Shown here in pieces: positions 1-41,316 of a stretch of 64,000 nt of DNA. Below the pieces are notes generated by a model, which saw nothing but the letters and a program-made list of their open reading frames with translations, had not been told where the DNA came from and ran no database searches. A program made the translations under genes and the position numbers. The DNA is from Naumovozyma dairenensis CBS 421 (taxonomy: Eukaryota > Ascomycota > Saccharomycetes > Saccharomycetales > Saccharomycetaceae): positions 885,259 to 949,258 of the forward strand of contig NC_016481.1 in assembly GCF_000227115.2 (NCBI RefSeq), given 5' to 3'. The stretch's first letter is position 1; each line of letters starts with the position of its first letter.

Positions 1-3000
1 TGAATGGTTGATTAAGGACAAGGAAAGAGTGTCGACTATCGAAATTTGGCATTTCGATTGTTACAATAAATGTTTACTGTCATGGGCAAAAAGGAACAAA
101 TTAAAAAGGAGGAGATTATTGCTAGAAAATTAAGCTTTAGAACTAATCGGGACTCGTGCATTAACAACTCATGAGTGAATTGTGTCATCGATACCTAATG
201 CAATAATCTTAACGTCCTTATGTATAATTTTGTTGGTGATTAAGGCAATTACTATTCCTAAAATGAAAATTATAGTGCTGGTTAAAGTTGTGTCGTCTAC
301 CTTTGAAAATGTAGCGTAGTATTTGAGTTGTTCTATTTTTAGCATAGACCGAGAGACTTTGAATTTTCGGCGGTCATTTTTTACGTCGTCAGAGAAAAGT
401 TAGTAGAACTAGATGGAAAGTCCCTTAATAATAACCACCAGGACTCAGTAATTCAAATACGTATCCATAATTGGTACTGAAGTAGTATACGGAACCCCAA
501 TAGAGCTCTCAATTGTAAAAAAAAGCTAAATGAGACTAACCTAAAAATATCTTATCTCCCAAAAGTTTCTTCTTTTGCCAAAAGGTACGATGATAATTTA
601 GAGTCTATTTATATCTTTAAGACACATGTATGGATTCATTATTTTTTTGAAAAATAAACCAAATATTGGTGATGTTTCAAAAATTTAAATAGGTAGATTT
701 TTTGAGTAATAACATTTTTGCAGTTGCCATAGTTCACCTTGATTTATTACTTCAAGTGAATAATTTCAAATATGAAAATAGTCTATAAATGTGTGCGAAA
801 AAAATTGAAGACGTCGAGTAAATTGCACAACAAACTTAGAGTTAGAAAATTTCCTTGATGTACTCGAAAGTAAAATCTCTGCTTGAAGTCATATACCAAG
901 ATCAATTCGTTTTACAGCAATCTCTAACGTTATAATCAGCGACACACTTCTTCGCTGATTATTTCTATGATTTCACCCTTAGCTGGTCCTCTACCTGTAT
1001 TCATACTTAGTTTTTCACACATATAGGGAAAGATTGCAATTAACCCTCAATTTTAACTAATTGACAGGAAAATATAATAAAAGATAGGAGCTCATAAGAA
1101 AATATGGATAAATTCAGAAGACCAGAGTAAAAAATGGAGATAACGAGAAAGTATAACTTCTTTAGAGTACTGTAGGAAAACCAACCATCTCTATATTTCT
1201 AGAAGAGCTGATAGATAGCCTGAAAGATTGGGTATTTTGACAAATTTATTGAGGATAAACTCGAGATAGTACGAGTTTTTTTTAACAATCAGAAATGAGA
1301 ATTTGCTAGATTGATAAATGTAACACAAATTCGCAACTAATGAGTTAATGTAGCTTAAAGGCACAGTGAAATTAAAACACAAAGTGCGAACTTCGTGACT
1401 AATACCTTTTAAGTTTAAATTTGAGGCCACATGCCTTTGATTTTCGGTAATGATGAATTTATGGTTCCAAATGACTGTGAAAAAGTAGATGATCCTGATC
1501 TTCTAAAAAAATGATTATAAATGAGGTCAAAAATAGATAGATGCGAAGAATGGGTTGTGCATTTGGGCAAGAACAGGATAAAATGTAAGCCTCGTATATG
1601 TAGCTTTGATATATCGCCACAGTTTATTAAAAGAGCAAACTAGGTCTAAATAAGATGCATCAACGTTGCGTATGTGTTTTAGAAACATAATTCTGATCAA
1701 AAGATAAATGTTTCATTGTTCAATTCAATTTTATGAAGGCTGTTTCTTGTAAGTGCACGACAGGATAGAATAATGGGGTATCATGGCAGAATGTTAACTA
1801 GGAATATCCAGATAAAATAAACAAGCAAAATTCCAACCTTTAGCCACTGTTTTTATTAGTTATAGTAACAGATGGAGCTGAAGATATCTAGTTGGTGCCA
1901 GTTCAAATTAGGAAGGTAATCGAGCATAAAGGTCGTCAACAACTATTACAAGTATTCTTTTCTGGAAGTATCCCCAAACTGCTTCAGCTATACATCCAAT
2001 AACGTAAATGTTGCCATGGCATTGGTAAATCGAATGGCAAATGAAATTCCCAGACAATGCTGGGCATATGGTTGGTAAAATTTATCTCGATGACTTACCT
2101 AAAAGTATAGTATTTAAGGAAGCTCCACGGGTTTTTGCTTTTAGTATATGCCCGCATAGCTGGTATTCTTGAGTTTGATCCTAACGAAATCAAGCCTCGA
2201 ATCGACTAATTTGAAATTACTGTGGAACTGGATTACCTTATTGATACCTTTGATCGGGTAGCTCTGAATAGATTCTTAAATATCGAGAATATAAAATTAA
2301 TGATGAAGTACAGTATTTTTGAAGATAAGGATAAAACAATCGGGGTACGATGAGTGTCAGTTTCTGGGGGTTGATATAAACATGTGAGGTCAGATAATCA
2401 TGTCACGCGTAAACCAACAAAATAGGAGATGACGAATAGTATTATTACAGAGATTTCTTTCATGATACATCTTCTCTCTCCAGATTAATGTATTTCTCTG
2501 ATTAACATAAACTGTTTGTTCGATGTACAGGAAGTTAGAGAAATATCGGAGGGGATAAACGACACATTTTTCCCAGGAATATTTAGCGCATCATCGGAAT
2601 TTGACATTCTTAAGCCACTAAACAAAGACACCCATTCGTTTCAACCATATCTATCGCCAAGATCACAAGTAATATAAGCCTATCCCACTCAAATTGAACA
2701 TTCACTGTAATTATTTCCATTTTCTGTATTAGCGAACACCAAAATATTAGAACGAGAAAAGCCGCTTGTCCCACTACTCTAACAATTTTCCCAATATATC
2801 AATGTCTGAATACACAATTCTGGCTTCAAAGGTACATGAATTGCTGTAACTTCATTCAATATAAATTCAAAACATTGTATTTCTTGCAAGAACGTAAGGT
2901 ACCCGAAACTGGAACGTTAAAGAGAATGTATAAATATTTAGCCTTGGTGTAAGATAGCTACGTCTCATTATATAGCAGATCTCTTTCTGTCAGTAATTTA

Positions 3001-3306
3001 TATATAGATATATACCGTACACGAAAATATATTATCTATGTAAATAATATTCTTAACAGTCATTCGATTAGGCATCTGGCGCGCAGTATTTCCACATATA
3101 AATACCTTTCCAGACATTATCTTACGAACCGTTCCTGCTTATGGAACGAAAATAAAAACTTAGATAGTGGAATTTCGAAAGAAGGGTACTTCTTGTACCA
3201 AGTGCATGGATCATTGATATTCTTGCTTATAATTCTGCCATTTCTCTTTGTAAATTAAACAATGAGCATAGCAATATCTAGTATATTCTACTAGCACTTT
3301 TCTAAT
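1..3306. other. Gene-poor left end with decayed coding remnants
   Basis: No intact ATG-initiated gene is visible over 3.3 kb, which is long for a yeast intergenic region. The first ~140 bases read as an open frame (frame 2, starting EWLIKDKERVS) that runs in from outside the window and stops; it could be the end of a gene or more debris. An open frame without ATG runs on the minus strand between about 1505 and 1191. The strongest coding-like signal is at 1858-2670 and is listed separately. No tRNA-like A and B boxes were seen. Confidence 0.6.
1858..2670 (+). pseudogene. Decayed unidentified protein-coding remnant
   Basis: Several consecutive plus-strand stretches read like protein but sit in different frames or carry stops. 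About 1858-2000 reads IVTDGAED, stop, then LVPVQIRKVIEHKGRQQLLQ. About 2043-2170 includes KFPDNAGHMVGKIYLDD. About 2148-2352 includes YARIAGILEFDPNEIKPRID, a stop, then ITVELDYLIDTFDR. About 2455-2670 includes EGINDTFFPGIFSASSEF and ends at a stop. They share one direction and their composition is not that of random AT-rich DNA, so I infer one old gene broken by indels and stops. I do not recognise the family. Chance open frames remain possible. Confidence 0.4.
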
Positions 3307-3933
3307 CTAATCTTCATCATCAAACATTGATTTTGGAGGGAATGCTGTTCTTACTTGTTCCAGCGTCATATGTACCGGCCTATCAGCCTGAGCACATGTA
3401 TCCACCGTAATTCTACCAGATTTTGAATCTATTAATGTATAAGTTCCAGGTTCCTTTAGTGTCTCTTCCCTTAACGTCGTATGTTGCTGTTTTTCATCAT
3501 GCGAAGGATGTGTGAGAGAACTTGGAGGTCCCTCACATTTTGAATAATCAAATTCAGGAGGAGGTGATGCAGGTGGTGAAACTAAAAATAATGTTTCATG
3601 AGGTGGTAACTCAAGATATTTCTTAGGAGCAGCCGTTGCTCTCCCATCCACTAACGAATAACCTATGTTCAAAGGTAAGTTATCTGGCTTGGGTTCCATT
3701 TCTTTAATATATTTTGAGATAGCATGATTTGGACAAATAATCAGAAGTCGTTTCATGCTCCCTAGTATAACGATCTCAATAGGTAGATCAGGAAGAACGT
3801 CGAACTCTAGTAAGACTGTATCAGTTAACCATTTTTGGATCACTTCCACAATGTCACGATCTGTGACGTTCACTTTATCTGATGTAACAATAACGGTATC
3901 TGTCACTGAAGAGTTATTTTCTATACTATCCAT
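3307..3933 (-). CDS. RCN1: Calcipressin, calcineurin regulator Rcn1
   Basis: This 208-residue protein belongs to the RCAN/calcipressin family, which binds calcineurin and inhibits or stimulates it depending on level and phosphorylation. The family signature is clear: an RRM-like N-terminal half, then SPPASPPPEF at residues 119-128, the serine-proline motif that is phosphorylated in the yeast protein, and a C-terminal FPPKSMFDDED tail shared with S. cerevisiae Rcn1 (211 residues). The start chosen is the ATG at 3933; the frame is open two codons further, but only from a TTG. It is divergent from APE2, the same pairing as YKL159C and YKL157W. I saw no perfect Crz1 site in the 330-base shared promoter. 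Confidence 0.93.
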   Translation of the reverse strand: MDSIENNSSVTDTVIVTSDKVNVTDRDIVEVIQKWLTDTVLLEFDVLPDLPIEIVILGSMKRLLIICPNHAISKYIKEMEPKPDNLPLNIGYSLVDGRATAAPKKYLELPPHETLFLVSPPASPPPEFDYSKCEGPPSSLTHPSHDEKQQHTTLREETLKEPGTYTLIDSKSGRITVDTCAQADRPVHMTLEQVRTAFPPKSMFDDED

Positions 3934-4263: not shown

Positions 4264-7200
4264 ATGTCAATACGACTCTTAGGAACTGGGTTGAAACCTT
4301 GTGTAAGCGCACTAAGTGGTCAATCCAATGGTTTGGCCTTTAAGATCGCATCGGTTTTAACAACAAGACTATATTCAACTAATAAGCTAGCCCAAATAAG
4401 AAACACAGGAACGAATATTGTAAACAAATGGGATATGAACAAAGCTACAAAAATCTACCTGGCGCAAAGATCATTGTTCACAGAGACACTGCATTCTTGT
4501 GCCAAATGTCAGAAAACGTCTGAAATATTGAAACAAAAGTATGTCAATTTCAATTTTAATCTGTTAACTTTTTGTATCTAAAAACATGAGCAATATCAAA
4601 TAACTAAAGCAAACAACAATGATTGGGTCATTATTGAACTTCATACTTCCATATTTCCTGCTTTTTGGCAATATCTTCAGGTACGTAACTTCTAGACACT
4701 ATAGTGACTTCCCTATGTACTGAAATTCTCGGGTAATAACGCCAGCCTTTGAAAAAGTTTACAAGGGATACAGGACCGGTGGCAAAAAAAGACCATTCCT
4801 ACCAAATCTAAAGGACTGGACTGCAAGGAAGAATCACCTAAAATCCCATTAGAAGTACTCAATTGCTCTAGTTGCAAATTGTTATAAGGAACTTTAACTT
4901 GAATTTCTTCATTTTACTAACTTTTTCTATGTCTAGCAAAATTATTGACCGTGAGGTTTTACCTACAAATGTTACTCCATTACATTATGATTTACAGATT
5001 GAACCAAACTTCAAGGATTTTACTTTCAAAGGTATCGCCAAGATTGAATTGAAAATTAATGATAAGAACGTCGATTCCATCCAATTGAATGCTTTAGACA
5101 TTGAAATTCAATCCTCTAAACTTGCATCCAATATTGAACCATCTCAAATTGTCCCAAATAAGGAAACTCAAGTTGTTGATTTTATTTTCCCAGACGGAAC
5201 TCTATCGAAGGTTGGTGAATCAACTACTTTAGAATTAAATTTCACTGGTATTTTGAACGATCAAATGGCAGGTTTCTATAGAGCTAAATATGAAGATAAA
5301 TTGACAGGAGAAATCAAATATATGGCAACAACTCAAATGGAACCAACTGACGCAAGAAGAGCATTCCCATGTTTTGATGAGCCAAATTTGAAGGCTTCCT
5401 TTGGTATCACTCTTGTTTCCGATCCTTCCTTGACTCATTTATCTAATATGGATGTTAAAGAGGAACATGTTGAAAATGGTAAAAAGTTCACCACTTTTAA
5501 CGTTACTCCAAAGATGTCAACTTATCTTGTTGCATTCATTGTTGCTGAATTGAAATACGTGGAGTGCAAAGATTTCAGAATTCCTGTTAGAGTCTACGCT
5601 ACTCCAGGTAGTGAAAAAGATGGTCAATTTGCAGCTGATTTAACTGCTAAGACTTTGGACTTTTTTGAAAATACTTTTGGTATCAAATACCCATTACCAA
5701 AAATGGATAACGTTGCAGTTCATGAATTCTCTGCTGGTGCAATGGAAAATTGGGGGTTAGTTACTTACAGAGTTGTTGATGTACTATTAGATGAGAAAAA
5801 TTCTACATTAGACCGTATCCAAAGAGTTGCTGAAGTTGTTCAACATGAATTGGCTCATCAATGGTTCGGTAATTTGGTTACTATGGACTGGTGGGAAGGT
5901 TTATGGTTAAACGAAGGGTTCGCTACATGGATGTCGTGGTATTCTTGTAATGAATTCCAACCTACATGGAACGTTTGGCAACAATATGTCACTGATACTT
6001 TACAACATGCATTAAATTTGGATTCTTTGAGATCATCTCATCCAATCGAAGTGCCAGTTAAAAGAGCTGAAGATATCAATCAAATTTTCGATGCTATTTC
6101 TTACTCTAAAGGTGCTTCTTTATTAAGAATGATTTCCAAATGGTTAGGTGAAGATGTTTTTATTAAGGGTGTTTCTCAATATTTAAGCCAATTCAAGTAC
6201 GGTAACGCTAAAACTGAAGATTTATGGACAGCTTTATCAAAAGCATCCGGTAAGGATGTCAGTTCTGTCATGAATATCTGGACTAAAAAGGTTGGTTTCC
6301 CAGTCATCTCCGTGAAGGAAGAAAATAATAAAATTACTTTTACTCAAAACCGTTATTTATCTACTGGTGATGTTGAATCTAAAGAAGACAAAACTTTGTA
6401 TCCAGTTTTCTTAGCTTTAAAGAGTAAAGATGGTGTTGATAACTCTTTAGTGTTGAATGAAAGATCCACATCTGTTGTCTTAAAGGACGCCGATTTCTTT
6501 AAGGCGAACAGCGATCAATCTGGTATATACATTACTTCGTATTCAGATGAAAGATGGGCCAAATTCAGTAAACAAGCTCATTTATTATCTGTCGAAGATC
6601 GTACTGGTTTAGTTGCTGATGCAAAGAGTCTTTCTGCCTCTGGTTACACTTCCACTACTAACTTCTTAAATTTGGTTGCTAATTGGAAAGATGAAGAATC
6701 TTTTGTTGTTCTTGATCAAATTATTAACAGTATTAGTTCATTGAAGGCAACTTGGGCATTTGAACCTGAAGAAGTTAGAGATTCCTTAGATGCTTTCACC
6801 AGATCTTTAGTTTCAGAAAAGGCACATACTTTAGGTTGGGAATTCAATGACTCTGATTCATTTGCCACTCAACGTACTAAGGTTGCTCTATTTAGTGCAT
6901 CCTGCGCTGCAAGAGATCCTGTTACTGAAAGGAGTGCTATTGAAATGTTCGAAAAATATGTTGCTGGTGACAAGAAGGCAATTCCAGCCTTAATCAAACC
7001 ATCTGTTTTCAATACTGCCGCAAGAGTTGGTGGTGAGGAAAACTATGAGAAAATTTATCAAATCTATAAAAACCCATCTAATAATGATGAGAAGATTGCT
7101 GCTTTAAGAACTCTAGGTAGATTTAAAGATGCTAAATTATTGGAAAGAACCTTAGGTTACTTATTAGACGGTACTGTTTTGAACCAAGATATCTACATTC

Positions 7201-7517
7201 CAATGCAAGGTATGAGAGCTCATAAGGAAGGTATCGTAGCTCTCTGGGGTTGGTTGCAAGCAAATTGGACAGAAGTCTCCAAGAGATTACCACCAGGATT
7301 ATCTATGTTAGGTTCAGTTGTCACCATTTGTACTTCTGGGTTCACTTCTTTCAAAGCGATCGATGAAATCAAGGCATTCTTTGACAAGATCTCTACGAAG
7401 GGTTTCGATCAAGGTTTAGCTCAATCATTGGATACAATCAAATCCAAGGCCCAATGGGTAAACAGAGATCGCGAAATGGTAAAGCAATACTTAAAAACTA
7501 ATGGATACTCTAAGTAA
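4264..7517 (+). CDS. APE2: M1 zinc aminopeptidase Ape2, one intron
   Basis: This is a puromycin-sensitive-type M1 metallopeptidase that removes N-terminal residues from peptides. Exon 1 (4264-4538) joins exon 2 (4937-7517) to give 951 residues, against 952 in S. cerevisiae Ape2. Exon 1 encodes an arginine-rich, acid-poor presequence-like N-terminus and ends with the conserved FTETLHSCAKCQKTS block. Exon 2 begins IIDREVLPTNVTPLHYD. Catalytic features in the spliced product are the exopeptidase motif GAMEN at residues 359-363, the zinc site HELAH at 395-399 and the third zinc ligand E418. The C-terminal ERAP1-like helical domain ends SKAQWVNRDREMVKQYLK. The 881-codon frame upstream of exon 2 opens with TTG; its first ATG is 4929. 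S. cerevisiae keeps a separate cytosolic paralogue, AAP1; no second copy is in this window. Confidence 0.94.
4730..4736 (+). promoter_or_regulatory. Reb1-type site inside APE2 intron
   Basis: CGGGTAA matches the core bound by the general regulatory factor Reb1, which clears nucleosomes at yeast promoters. It lies 199 bases before the in-frame ATG at 4929. A 7-base match can occur by chance; the nearby PACE element makes it more interesting. Confidence 0.5.
4778..4786 (+). promoter_or_regulatory. PACE element (Rpn4 site) inside APE2 intron
   Basis: GGTGGCAAA is a perfect nonamer of the proteasome-associated control element bound by Rpn4. It lies 151 bases upstream of the ATG at 4929, a normal distance for an activator site in a yeast promoter. 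It suggests a second promoter within the intron that would link a cytosolic aminopeptidase to proteasome demand. Confidence 0.55.
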
Positions 7518-36448: not shown

Positions 36449-39400
36449 TTATTCTCTTCTAATGAATGGATTTAGGGCACGAACAGATAGACATGGTAAA
36501 GCCATACCAATTTCTGCTCTTAATAGTATTGGGATCTTTTGCAACTCATGGATTTCTTGGATGCAATTATCTCCTTCCCTTCTTGTGATTGTACTTGAAA
36601 TAAACTTATCTAACGGATCAGTAGCCTTTTCATTCTCAGGAAGTCTTAGTCTTGGAACATCTAAGTTTAGATTAGAAAGTTCTTTACTTAAACTATCACT
36701 TATGAAATCTTCACTATTAGAATTTATTTCCATTGCTGCAATTTCTGCCGTTGTTGACCTGAACTTATTCTTGATGGAATTTCTATAAGATTTTGGATTC
36801 TTTTCATCAGCTGGGACGAATGTGGCACTATCCACACCAGGCTGCCAATGTAATTCTAACACTCTACTGACACCATCGAATTCAGCTTTAAGCAATGGTA
36901 ATTGATCACCATGAACTCTTTTTTCTACACCAAACTCTGGAATGAAAACATCGAATGAGGATTCGTAGACTTGTAACACAGTAGCCATAGTTAGTAATTG
37001 TCCAGTCGCATTACCCATATCATTAATTGTTTTACAAAGTAACAAATGAATGGCTTGTTCTTGAGATTGATATGCACAATCCTTCTTAAAATTACAATAT
37101 TCAGAAGTAATCTTTAATGCATCAATATCTTCAGTATATGGAACACCTCTGATGGCAGACCTTAGTTGCCTATGTACCACATGGTCCGCATATCTTCTTA
37201 ACGGAGATGTGAAATGTGTATAAATTGGTAGGTTTAATGAATAATGACTATATTGATCAGGATCAACTTTACCAGCAACAAAATATTTGGCTCTTGACAT
37301 TGTCTTAAAAAGCAAGATTTCAACACCAACCCTAACATCAGAATCTTCGATCTTCAAAATGGATTGTATTATCGTAGCAATTGAGGTAATATCAATGTCT
37401 AAACCAAACTTTTGAATCTTGTTCTTAAATAATGACATCTTTGTGATCACTGGTTGAGCTTCTCTTCTTAAGAATGATGAATCGCCTAATTTGGTATATA
37501 TTTTTTCCGCTATTGTAGAATTAACCTTATGTTGGATCTCATTTATTACTACATATCCTAAAGTTCTGTCTAGTATATTCAAATCGACGTTAACCTTCTC
37601 GTCATCAATACTCTCAAACAAGGATAAGGTTGGCATTAGTTTCGCTTCCGGATACTCTATTCTTGTAGCATAAAAGGATGTAGCAATTTTTTCAACGATC
37701 GATAGATATGGATCAACATCATCAGATGCCAAATTATCATCTATTTCTTTTGCAGTCATAAACCTTGATGGTAAAATGATAGATTCACAAACAGTTGTAG
37801 ATCTAATTTCTAAAGTTTCTGCGTTTAAAGTATATATGACAGATAAAGTAGCCGATTTCTTATCCTTTTTCAAGCTTAGGGATTCATTAAGTGCCTTTGG
37901 TAATAAGTTAACAACCTTTTGTGGCATGAACACACCGGATGATCTCTTCCTTGCTCTTCTGTCCAAGGAAGAATTCTCCTCGATGTGTGCTGTGGCATCG
38001 ACAACATGACAACCTAATTCAAATGTTCCATCATTGTTATTTTTAACATGTAAAGCAAATTCAGAAAGTGAATCATTTTCAGCAATAGCTAAGATGCTAT
38101 ATTCAGATGGATCTGTGAAATCAGTTCTCACAGCCAATTCATTTTCAGGAATTGGTAAAGCTTGAAACATTGCCTTTTCCTTTGTTGGATCTTTATTGTC
38201 TAAATACTCATTAGATAAGAAATTGTTATCTCTCAAGATAGAATCAATTTCAGTATTTGGATCATTAATTTCACCCAATTCTGAAACTAAGATACCGAAT
38301 GGATGTAAAGAAGTTATTGGCCAACGTTTAATAGATGCAACGAATAATTTATCAGAGTACTTGTCAGCATTTTCAACAAAATCTTTTGGTGCTAATTCAG
38401 TAGGAATGGCGATTAGTGGAACTTTTTTATCAGTAGGCTTAAACCATGCAATCTTTGGAGCTTTAGGTGGTTTATCATCACTATGGTTTTGTTGAGATGG
38501 TCTTAGTAAACCTAATGTACCACTGAATAGTTGACCTGGAATACGATCCAAGACTGCAACAACATGACCAGCATATAACGGTTTATATTTATCGTTAATT
38601 TCTTCTTCTTCGACTAGTAATAATGATTGACCCTCCACTTCAACATCGTCATTCTTCTTTTGGGTTGGACGTTGCTTCAATGAACCCTTTCTCTTAAGAC
38701 TAGATTTGGTTGGTGATTTATCATTATCCATACCTCTTGATCTATTTGGAGTAGAAAGTATGTTATCTTCATTAGATGTTGAAGAAGAATTGAAATTAGA
38801 AGCCAAAAAATTACTGCTCAAAGCATTAGCAGAAGCATCGTTATGATAATCATCGTTGCCATTCAATGGTATAATATCCTGTTGTAAAGAAGCGTCTTTT
38901 CTTCTCTTTTTTTCCTCTTTTTCCTTTTTAGAATCCCAAACATCATCGACTACTAACAATTCTACAGCGACTAAATCACCTTCTAAGGCTCTATTACGAT
39001 CTTTGGAACCACAAATATAGATATCTGCATCTAATGCACCATCTGTGGAGACCCATGCGTCAGATCTGTTTTTCTTGTTAACTCGTAAGATACCTGCTAC
39101 CAACTTCCCTTCTTGAATTAATCCTGGGATATTTGCTTGTGGTAAATATGGAGCGAACAAAGATTTACGTGTGCTTTGGTTTTGATTACCACCACTGTTA
39201 GATGAGAAACTTTGGACTGAAGCGTTTGATCCGCGAGGATGATGACCTTGGAAGAAAGCAGGGGGCTCTAAGTTATTGGATGAATTATAATCTCTTGAGT
39301 TTGTTTGTCTATGACGAAATGGCGATTGTTGTTGTTGCTGTTGAATTTGGGATTGAGTTTGAGATTGATTTCTCCAATTGGAGTTGATACCAGGGGAGGA

Positions 39401-40231
39401 AAACTCGTTGTTTCTTGTTTTAGAGCGACGATGTGTGGAAGATGTTGGTGTAAAATCATCATCTTGATTATTATTATTATAACTAGTTGGTGTAGGTGGA
39501 AATTTAAAAGTCGGTGGTGATAAGTTTGAGTTTGATCGGCGGTGACTTTGACCAGATCCTTGCTGTTGTTGTTGTTGTTGTTGTTGCAATTGAACTGGTG
39601 CAGGTGGGAACTTGAATGAAGATTGTTCTATAGGAAGTTCTTCTGGTGAAGCGCTTTCATCTTTAGATTTTGGATTAAATTCATTACCATTAAAAGATGA
39701 TGATCCTCCTCTTTTCGCTTGTTCTTCTGCAGCTGCCCTTTTAGCTTCATTCAAAACTAACGAATGTCTTCTGGAATGACCATATACACTTGATTGAGAG
39801 CCAGTTTTCCTGTGTGTGTTTACACCCAAGTTATTAGGATTGTTATTGTTATCATATGAGTTTTGGTAATAACCAGAGTTATCTCTAGAATGTGATCTAC
39901 TTCTATTACCAGCAGACATGTTTGGCGTATTATAGTGGGATGGAGGTATAAATCCTTGATTCTTATTGTTATTATTGGTATTGTTATTAGTAGCAATGAA
40001 TTGGCCAGTTTGTTGGGCCAATTGTTGTTGTTGTGCAAGTAATTGTTGTTGTTGGGCTTGAACTGCCTCCAATTGCTTTTGTAAAGTCAGTTGTTCAATC
40101 ATCAAATTTGTTAATTCACTTTGAGATCTTCTATGTGCAACGTGTATTTGCTTTGGTACATTTTTACCTCCACCTGTTGTCTTCACATAGACATTTTCTT
40201 GGTAATTATTATTGTTACTATTTTTAGACAT
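36449..40231 (-). CDS. SSD1: RNA-binding translational regulator Ssd1
   Basis: The 1260-residue protein (1250 in S. cerevisiae) is an RNase II-fold pseudonuclease that binds 5' leaders of cell-wall mRNAs and represses them under control of the kinase Cbk1. The disordered N-terminus (about 1-370) has poly-Gln and poly-Asn runs and at least five Cbk1-type H-x-R-x-x-S/T sites: HRRSQS ending at residue 38, HSRDNS, HSRRHS, HRRSNS and HRRSKT. Cold-shock domains and the RNB-like barrel follow, ending RALNPFIRRE. The ATG at 40231 was chosen; the four-codon extension upstream begins with TTG. Confidence 0.96.
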   Translation of the reverse strand: MSKNSNNNNYQENVYVKTTGGGKNVPKQIHVAHRRSQSELTNLMIEQLTLQKQLEAVQAQQQQLLAQQQQLAQQTGQFIATNNNTNNNNKNQGFIPPSHYNTPNMSAGNRSRSHSRDNSGYYQNSYDNNNNPNNLGVNTHRKTGSQSSVYGHSRRHSLVLNEAKRAAAEEQAKRGGSSSFNGNEFNPKSKDESASPEELPIEQSSFKFPPAPVQLQQQQQQQQQGSGQSHRRSNSNLSPPTFKFPPTPTSYNNNNQDDDFTPTSSTHRRSKTRNNEFSSPGINSNWRNQSQTQSQIQQQQQQSPFRHRQTNSRDYNSSNNLEPPAFFQGHHPRGSNASVQSFSSNSGGNQNQSTRKSLFAPYLPQANIPGLIQEGKLVAGILRVNKKNRSDAWVSTDGALDADIYICGSKDRNRALEGDLVAVELLVVDDVWDSKKEKEEKKRRKDASLQQDIIPLNGNDDYHNDASANALSSNFLASNFNSSSTSNEDNILSTPNRSRGMDNDKSPTKSSLKRKGSLKQRPTQKKNDDVEVEGQSLLLVEEEEINDKYKPLYAGHVVAVLDRIPGQLFSGTLGLLRPSQQNHSDDKPPKAPKIAWFKPTDKKVPLIAIPTELAPKDFVENADKYSDKLFVASIKRWPITSLHPFGILVSELGEINDPNTEIDSILRDNNFLSNEYLDNKDPTKEKAMFQALPIPENELAVRTDFTDPSEYSILAIAENDSLSEFALHVKNNNDGTFELGCHVVDATAHIEENSSLDRRARKRSSGVFMPQKVVNLLPKALNESLSLKKDKKSATLSVIYTLNAETLEIRSTTVCESIILPSRFMTAKEIDDNLASDDVDPYLSIVEKIATSFYATRIEYPEAKLMPTLSLFESIDDEKVNVDLNILDRTLGYVVINEIQHKVNSTIAEKIYTKLGDSSFLRREAQPVITKMSLFKNKIQKFGLDIDITSIATIIQSILKIEDSDVRVGVEILLFKTMSRAKYFVAGKVDPDQYSHYSLNLPIYTHFTSPLRRYADHVVHRQLRSAIRGVPYTEDIDALKITSEYCNFKKDCAYQSQEQAIHLLLCKTINDMGNATGQLLTMATVLQVYESSFDVFIPEFGVEKRVHGDQLPLLKAEFDGVSRVLELHWQPGVDSATFVPADEKNPKSYRNSIKNKFRSTTAEIAAMEINSNSEDFISDSLSKELSNLNLDVPRLRLPENEKATDPLDKFISSTITRREGDNCIQEIHELQKIPILLRAEIGMALPCLSVRALNPFIRRE

Positions 40232-41316
40232 TATAATTTCCAAAGAATTTCTTCTTCTTGATGGTAGATACCTTTCGATACTTGATGGATTCCAAAATAG
40301 TCGTTATGGTAAATAATAGTAAGCAAAGAAAAGAAAGGCTTGGTATTCTAACTGTAATGTAGGTAAATTTGCAATGGACGAAAAATTCGTAATATAATGT
40401 TTTCCAGGATCTATTTGATAATTTTTTTTCTTTCCCTTTTTGTTTGAAGTCGGAAGGAAAAAAATACGATCTGAAAATGTGCGTGAACGTCAGTGTATGC
40501 GTTAGGGAGTATAAATCCACAGGGTTTAACCAAAGACTAACGTGTAATAAAAAGAGAAGAAGATCAAACTATGAACGTCACAGATCTTCTTAATATTCTA
40601 ATTGTATTGTGAATGTATCTCTTTAAAAATATCAGAAGAGTAATACCGCTGTTTGGGTAATGAATGAACGGAGATATATCAGATTTTACGTAATCCTTGA
40701 GTTTATAAAAAAGAAAGATCAACTGAAAGGAGGATCTGTAGGTTCAGTAGAAGAGTGAAAGTATACTATTCTCTTTAGCTTTTCTGAAATGAATGAAGAA
40801 AAATCTAAAATGTTTGTATTAATCAGATCTTCTTAGTTTCCTAGAACAAATTTCTTTTTATTTTTATACTTTCTTGGGGAAGTCTAGTGACGCTGATGAT
40901 GAAAAATATTTAACAGTTGTGGTCTCTTTAGAGATAATACAGATATTTTCTTTATATATATACATATATATGTATGTTTTTGCTAGATATGAACTTAATA
41001 AGGATATGTATCTAGTTTGCCACCAATTAAGTAAATAATATCCCTAATCAGGCATCGTCACATTATATAAAATTTTGAAATTATATAGTATGTGCATGAA
41101 CAGCTTCTTGCCCCCCTTCTTCTTCTTCATCTTCCGCGCTTAAGGACCCTGCAGCCACACACCACAAAGAAAACAAACAACTATATATATATATGAATCC
41201 TTGTCTGACGTTTTTTATCATGAATTGTCATAAATTATTATTGTTATATCTATATATATATATATTAAACGTATCATCATATTTATTTATAAGTAAGCAG
41301 TTCAAAGCTTGAATCT
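40232..41316. promoter_or_regulatory. SSD1 promoter/long leader and DPL1 3' region
   Basis: 1.08 kb with no gene. TATATA-rich stretches occur near 40950-40975, 41180 and 41250. TTTGCCACC at 41016-41024 is a perfect reversed PACE nonamer, but it is 785 bases from SSD1, so its relevance is doubtful. Confidence 0.45.

What the first reader, a model, noticed from the sequence alone, without database searches (positions are those of the whole stretch)
4264..4940. One aminopeptidase gene built to make two isoforms
Splicing 4539-4936 gives a presequence-bearing Ape2 of 951 residues. The first ATG in the exon 2 frame is at 4929 and overlaps the 3' splice site (ATGTCTAG|C), so a transcript starting in the intron would give an 862-residue protein beginning MSSKIIDREV, very like cytosolic Aap1 (MSREVLP). 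S. cerevisiae uses two paralogues, AAP1 and APE2, for this. Here one locus could do both, either as the ancestral state or as regained after loss of the duplicate.
Basis: partly seen in the sequence, partly recalled or inferred. Interest (0 to 1): 0.75.

Follow-up and report, generated by a model that had tools for sequence, protein, structure and literature searches.

The report
Yeast aminopeptidase gene with two starts
A yeast aminopeptidase gene carries a spliced start that adds a probable mitochondrial leader and, inside its intron, a second start next to a proteasome-gene control site, so one gene may make a cytosolic and a mitochondrial form; baker's yeast seems to keep the same layout in APE2, so the arrangement is probably inherited rather than unique.

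Summary
Splicing 4539-4936 gives 951 residues; ATG 4929 lies in the last 8 bases of the intron and opens an 862-residue frame; no AAP1 copy was found in the genome. The contrast with S. cerevisiae does not hold: its Ape2p has the same leader, and a 99%-identical protein (P0103) starts with a Met at the same offset. Many relatives show the same start, so the layout is probably ancestral. ATG 4929 is spliced out, and nine ATGs precede it from 4264 on, so the short form needs a transcript starting inside the intron, 3' of 4715. New here: the intron carries an exact GGTGGCAAA (PACE, the recalled Rpn4 site) 151 bp before ATG 4929. In this genome 11 of 14 20S proteasome loci have that site 102-223 bp before their ATG; 38 of 100 fetched sites (this one included) are noncoding and 100-249 bp before an ORF start, against 2 of 20 control sites. 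Best reading: an Rpn4-responsive intronic promoter makes the cytosolic enzyme, the outer promoter the leader-bearing one. No transcript data; motif found post hoc. MRK1 of S. cerevisiae is a tested precedent.

The parts
4264..4538 (+). Exon 1: 91 codons plus two bases, encoding the N-terminal leader (MSIRLLGTG... RSLFTETLHSCAKCQKTSEILKQ), ATG 4264
   Evidence: motif R.LFT....C.KC shared with S. cerevisiae Ape2p P0013 and, in looser form, P0008, P0022, P0023 and P0039
4539..4936 (+). Intron, 398 bases: GTATGT at 4539, TACTAAC 4915-4921, TAG 4934-4936
4778..4786 (+). Exact PACE motif GGTGGCAAA (consensus recalled as the Rpn4 binding site), 151 bp upstream of ATG 4929; proposed activating site of the short transcript
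4718..4928 (+). 211-base stretch with no ATG in any + frame; proposed to hold the intronic transcript start(s) and 5' leader
   Evidence: ATG list; 67 of 1564 overlapping 211-base noncoding windows from 1-22583 are ATG-free (4.3%)
4929..7517 (+). Short-form ORF, 862 aa, MSSKIIDREVLP...; ATG overlaps the 3' splice site (ATGTCTAG|C)
   Evidence: M1 aminopeptidase domains
4937..7517 (+). Exon 2, shared by both forms (Peptidase_M1_N, Peptidase_M1, ERAP1_C)
3307..3933 (-). Neighbour: calcipressin family gene (RCN1-like), divergent; S. cerevisiae APE2 is recalled to lie beside RCN1

Best explanation
This is an APE2-type M1 aminopeptidase gene with two promoters and two translation starts. The outer promoter gives a pre-mRNA whose intron is removed, joining a leader with no acidic residue in its first 40 (probably mitochondrial) to the enzyme: 951 residues. 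A second promoter inside the intron, carrying a PACE site for Rpn4, gives a shorter mRNA that begins within the 211 ATG-free bases after position 4717, has no 5' splice site and so is not spliced, and is translated from ATG 4929 into the 862-residue cytosolic enzyme. Cytosolic synthesis would then rise with proteasome synthesis, and the enzyme would trim proteasome products, as is recalled for its relative puromycin-sensitive aminopeptidase. The layout is probably ancestral in the family; this genome has lost the duplicate (AAP1) that elsewhere is a permanently short form. Shown: frames, splice signals, motif, no AAP1 found, conservation at protein level. Inferred: intronic start, Rpn4 control, compartments, ancestry.
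For: Structure. Single AAP1/APE2 locus. Same layout in S. cerevisiae, judged from proteins: P0013 reads LLNKTPKREILP, P0103, 99% identical, reads MTSKTPNREILP, the same offset as MSSKIIDREVLP against KQNKIIDREVLP here. Residue 3 of short forms is Ser or Arg, as expected where ATGNNNAG|N spans a 3' splice site, in 41 of 49 non-AAP1 rows (window included) and 4 of 18 AAP1-clade rows; 26 of 34 against 4 of 13 after collapsing similar rows. PACE: 161 exact sites against 62 for the reversed pattern; 11 of 14 20S proteasome loci have an exact site 102-223 bp before the ATG; 38 of 100 fetched sites (69 noncoding; the window site is one of the 38) lie noncoding and 100-249 bp before an ORF ATG, against 2 of 20 control sites (7 noncoding) and 95 of 1500 random window positions (461 noncoding). 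Expected exact sites in 398 bases at the control rate: 0.0018. The intron's last 211 bases before ATG 4929 lack any ATG. Precedent: MRK1 of S. cerevisiae, passages of PMC5685637.
Against: No transcript or protein data. The motif was noticed post hoc; over a hundred yeast factor motifs (recalled order of magnitude) could have been noticed, which brings chance to the order of 0.1-0.2. The control is small: 20 of 62 sites; among noncoding sites alone the contrast is 38 of 69 against 2 of 7 and 95 of 461. The base at -3 of ATG 4929 is T, a poor context (yeast preference for A recalled). The ATG-free stretch is only mildly unusual (0.044 of shuffles). The leader's helical moment is not unusual (541 of 2000 shuffles as high). 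The S. cerevisiae APE2 intron segments printed in PMC2536676 (86 of 383 bases) contain no PACE; the other bases were not seen. P0002, the nearest relative in the tree, is listed with a start further downstream, so the short start is not confirmed there.
Confidence: 0.5

Rival explanations
1. One product only: all functional mRNA starts upstream of 4264 and is spliced; ATG 4929 is a by-product of a short 3' splice site region and the PACE match is chance.
For: Canonical splice signals. Weak start context at 4929. GFP-tagged AAP1 and APE2 of S. cerevisiae showed no scored redistribution on loss of the paralogue (PMC12405880, one table passage), which does not call for shared isoforms.
Against: A Met recurs at the same place in a protein 99% identical to S. 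cerevisiae Ape2p and in many relatives (gene-caller starts, so this leans towards having a Met). No cytosolic enzyme of this group would remain, since no AAP1 was found.
Confidence: 0.27
2. The short form exists, but from unregulated intronic initiation or from retained intron, not from an Rpn4-driven promoter.
For: The start recurs in relatives, whereas conservation of PACE is not known; the S. cerevisiae intron pieces seen (86 of 383 bases) hold none.
Against: Exact PACE at the spacing used by the proteasome genes of this genome. Retained intron from the outer promoter would put nine ATGs (4264 to 4715) ahead of 4929.
Confidence: 0.18
3. Dual location by other means: one long protein, made from spliced mRNA only, partly imported and partly left in the cytosol.
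For: Dual targeting of single products is common in yeast (recalled; not tested here).
Against: Does not explain the start that recurs at the splice site.
Confidence: 0.05

Closest known systems
S. cerevisiae APE2 (YKL157W), aminopeptidase II
   Same: Same leader end RPLFTETSHACAKCQKTS and, judged from P0013 and P0103, an in-frame Met at the same offset before the shared exon; one intron of 383 nt per PMC2536676, which also notes that an old annotation mapped two genes to the locus (passages)
   Different: Here the branch site is close to the 3' splice site with a single AG between; S. cerevisiae has an alternative 3' splice site 18 bases upstream (PMC4607428 passages), used more on heat shock (PMC5793784 passages). 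S. cerevisiae also keeps AAP1; none was found here
S. cerevisiae AAP1 (YHR047C)
   Same: Short-form protein 69% identical to P0051, which I take as AAP1
   Different: Window gene falls outside the AAP1 clade (18 rows, SH-aLRT 100) and has an intron and leader
MRK1 of S. cerevisiae, intronic Ndt80-driven promoter
   Same: Factor site in the intron, then an in-frame ATG in the intron, giving an N-terminally truncated product (PMC5685637 passages)
   Different: Factor here would be Rpn4, not Ndt80; the products would differ in location rather than meiotic timing; not tested experimentally
PTC7 and SKI7/HBS1 (isoforms split between duplicates)
   Same: One gene making two forms, later divided between duplicate genes (PMC3597508 passages)
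   Different: There by alternative splicing; here by alternative promoter; APE2 and AAP1 have 0 occurrences in the main text of that paper
Puromycin-sensitive aminopeptidase
   Same: Best-scoring solved relative, residues 9-856 of the short form aligned
   Different: Animal enzyme; a two-start layout there is recalled only

Membership tests
APE2/AAP1 group of M1 aminopeptidases | Peptidase_M1_N, Peptidase_M1 and ERAP1_C domains; HELAHQWFGNLV zinc site; GAMEN (motifs recalled as M1 hallmarks) | tested here: met
   domains; motifs visible in the translation
APE2 rather than AAP1 orthologue | Leader exon homologous to Ape2p and position outside the AAP1 clade | tested here: met
Intronic-promoter isoform gene (MRK1 type) | In-frame start in the intron, after the last out-of-frame ATG, and a factor site upstream of it in the intron | tested here: met
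Intronic-promoter isoform gene (MRK1 type) | Transcript starting in the intron, dependent on the site | not testable with these tools
   no transcript data held
Rpn4/PACE regulon | Exact GGTGGCAAA at the spacing used by proteasome genes of the same genome | tested here: met
   -151 here; -102 to -223 in 11 of 14 20S loci
Rpn4/PACE regulon | Site conserved in the APE2 intron of related species | tested here: inconclusive
   I had no yeast DNA other than this genome; 86 of 383 S. cerevisiae intron bases seen in PMC2536676, no PACE
Mitochondrial presequence | Basic, acid-free, amphipathic N-terminus | tested here: inconclusive
   4 K/R and 0 D/E in first 40; helical moment not above shuffles, 541 of 2000

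The most novel reading that the evidence does not exclude
The APE2 intron is a proteasome-linked promoter: Rpn4 acts through an intronic PACE so that the cytosolic peptidase is made in step with the proteasome whose products it trims, while the outer promoter sets the mitochondrial form. This two-promoter gene is ancestral to the family; after genome duplication AAP1 froze the short form in some lineages, and Naumovozyma went back to one gene for both.
Probability: 0.4. Interest if true: 0.6.

Novelty: new member of a known kind. Interest (0 to 1): 0.45.

Why it matters
If true, it explains why an otherwise ordinary intron has been kept, gives a clear case of a two-promoter ancestor behind a yeast duplicate pair, and links peptide trimming to proteasome supply by a nine-base site that can be tested with one small mutation. 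It also suggests checking whether S. cerevisiae APE2, whose intron has served in splicing studies (PMC2536676), makes an unspliced short protein that would confound such assays.

Tried and rejected
The repeat with the correct sequence and residues 66-200 gave 17 proteins, few of them long forms.

Literature: searches found no paper. Searches listed papers that hold the terms, several of them about other genes called APE2. I saw passages of PMC4607428, PMC2536676, PMC5793784, PMC12405880, PMC3567348 (gene lists only), PMC3597508 and PMC5685637, and only listings of the rest. Nothing seen describes a short APE2 isoform or Rpn4 control. The library lacks most subscription papers, so this is not proof of absence in print.

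Rejected: leaky scanning on the spliced mRNA (ATG 4929 is not in it); a hidden AAP1 elsewhere; regulation of the calcipressin gene by the PACE (its ATG is 845 bases away). A 20-site control was used in place of the planned 60.

Full report
What is there. The window belongs to a 13.53 Mb, 11-contig genome; size, contig number and gene content fit Naumovozyma dairenensis (inference from recall; the lineage is). At 4264-7517 lies an M1 aminopeptidase gene with one 5' intron. One search confirms GTATGT at 4539, TACTAAC at 4915-4921 and TAG ending at 4936, and one frame of 951 residues after joining. Exon 2, with the last 8 bases of the intron, is an ORF of 862 residues from ATG 4929. The domains are Peptidase_M1_N, Peptidase_M1 and ERAP1_C, and the best-scoring solved relative is puromycin-sensitive aminopeptidase.

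No second copy found. Four loci in the genome match Peptidase_M1. An 856-aa protein that I take to be AAP1 (P0051; the listing gives it no name) finds the window locus at 70% over 2-855 and then two M1 genes at 28%. In a tree of 84 rows the window gene groups with P0002 (SH-aLRT 99), outside an 18-row clade (support 100) that holds P0051 and two records named after YHR047C AAP1, P0071 and P0074 (quick method). So AAP1 appears to have been lost here.

Not unique to this species. S. cerevisiae Ape2p (P0013, 952 aa) has the same leader end, RPLFTETSHACAKCQKTSQLLNK. In one search a pattern picked 22 rows, out of 122 proteins plus the spliced window protein, with an extension of 40 or more residues; 6 carry a motif of the type R.(L/F/M)....C.KC: window, P0008, P0013, P0022, P0023, P0039. 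The other 16 do not; of the 8 of these with an organism name, 7 are from outside the family by recalled taxonomy and one (P0054, Ashbya) is from inside it. The pattern dropped P0052 and P0029, which read RTLITTTRPPCNKC and RSFFRESCHKC. P0103, 99% identical to P0013 over 625 residues, begins MTSKTPNREILP where the spliced form reads LLNKTPKREILP: by inference an in-frame Met in the APE2 intron at the same offset as in the window; the DNA behind P0103 was not seen. PMC2536676 states that an older S. cerevisiae annotation mapped two genes to this locus (passage). Short forms with a Met 2-12 residues before the RE(V/I)LP-like motif are general: 67 of the first 80 listed proteins, the window's own included. 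These are gene-caller starts, so the count leans towards having a Met. Their third residue is Ser or Arg in 41 of 49 non-AAP1 rows and 4 of 18 AAP1 rows (26 of 34 and 4 of 13 after collapsing), as expected if ATGNNNAG| is held at a 3' splice site in the first group only. MSS is also a common yeast N-terminus (recalled) and the rows are related, so this is suggestive. In some long forms of more distant yeasts the frame runs through, with an internal Met where the short record starts (P0108 and P0109).

How a short form can arise. ATG 4929 is removed with the intron, so the mature long mRNA cannot give it. From 4264 to 4715 there are nine ATGs; without splicing each opens a frame that ends early. 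After 4715 there is none before 4929. A transcript must therefore start in 4718-4928. ATG-free stretches of this length are 4.3% of noncoding windows here (67 of 1564 overlapping windows).

A candidate promoter. The intron carries GGTGGCAAA at 4778-4786, the PACE element bound by Rpn4 (consensus recalled). One other exact site is in the 64 kb. Genome-wide there are 161 exact sites against 62 for the reversed pattern. Of 14 loci matching the Proteasome family, 11 have an exact site 102-223 bp before the ATG, 2 (L006, L014) have one-mismatch sites only, and one (L016) had no start resolved, though an exact site lies 333 bp before its domain match. For the 100 sites that the search listed (of 161), 69 are noncoding by an ORF test (ATG-started frames of 80 codons or more) and 38 of these, the window site included, lie 100-249 bp before the nearest ORF ATG. 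Of 20 control sites fetched (of 62), 7 are noncoding and 2 lie in that range; of 1500 random window positions, 461 are noncoding and 95 lie in that range. The window site is at -151. By location alone about nine in ten such sites exceed chance (my arithmetic: 38 seen, 2 to 4 expected from the 38% chance share). That estimate rests on a small control, counts ATG 4929 as an ORF start, which is the point at issue, and the motif was noticed after reading the intron; I therefore hold the Rpn4 step at about even odds.

Precedent. In S. cerevisiae MRK1 an Ndt80 site in the intron and an in-frame ATG in the intron give a truncated kinase, tested by mutation of the site (PMC5685637, passages). Splitting of a two-product gene between duplicate copies is described for SKI7/HBS1 and PTC7 (PMC3597508, passages), where APE2 and AAP1 do not occur in the main text. 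The present gene is thus a likely new member of a known kind.

Against. No transcript data; T at -3 of ATG 4929; helical moment of the leader not unusual (541 of 2000 shuffles); PACE conservation in other species not testable here and not seen in the 86 of 383 bases of the S. cerevisiae intron printed in PMC2536676; the nearest relative in the tree, P0002, is listed with a start further downstream.

Noticed in passing
window 1-3306: No complete ATG-started ORF of 100 codons or more in the first 3.3 kb, a gene-poor stretch left of the calcipressin gene (frames running off the left end are not listed by that call).
   Followed up: no
L002 946-2931 (-), C4:295618 region: Another M1 gene (leukotriene A4 hydrolase-like by recall, not tested) also opens with a basic extension (MYSLLKAFPPRTRVRSISLVPPRKIRMNAM...) containing internal Met codons; possibly a second two-start aminopeptidase. 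No exact PACE in its 720 upstream bases.
   Followed up: partly
window 41016-41024 (-): Second exact PACE of the window, 793 bp before the SSD1-like start (name recalled), outside the usual range (L076).
   Followed up: partly
window 38758 (+): The only other GTATGT...TACTAAC...YAG set in the window, inside the 36449-40231 ORF and on the opposite strand, so probably chance.
   Followed up: no
L016, C4:848100-850100: One 20S proteasome locus has no in-frame ATG upstream of its domain match; a 5' intron or an upstream exon is possible.
   Followed up: no
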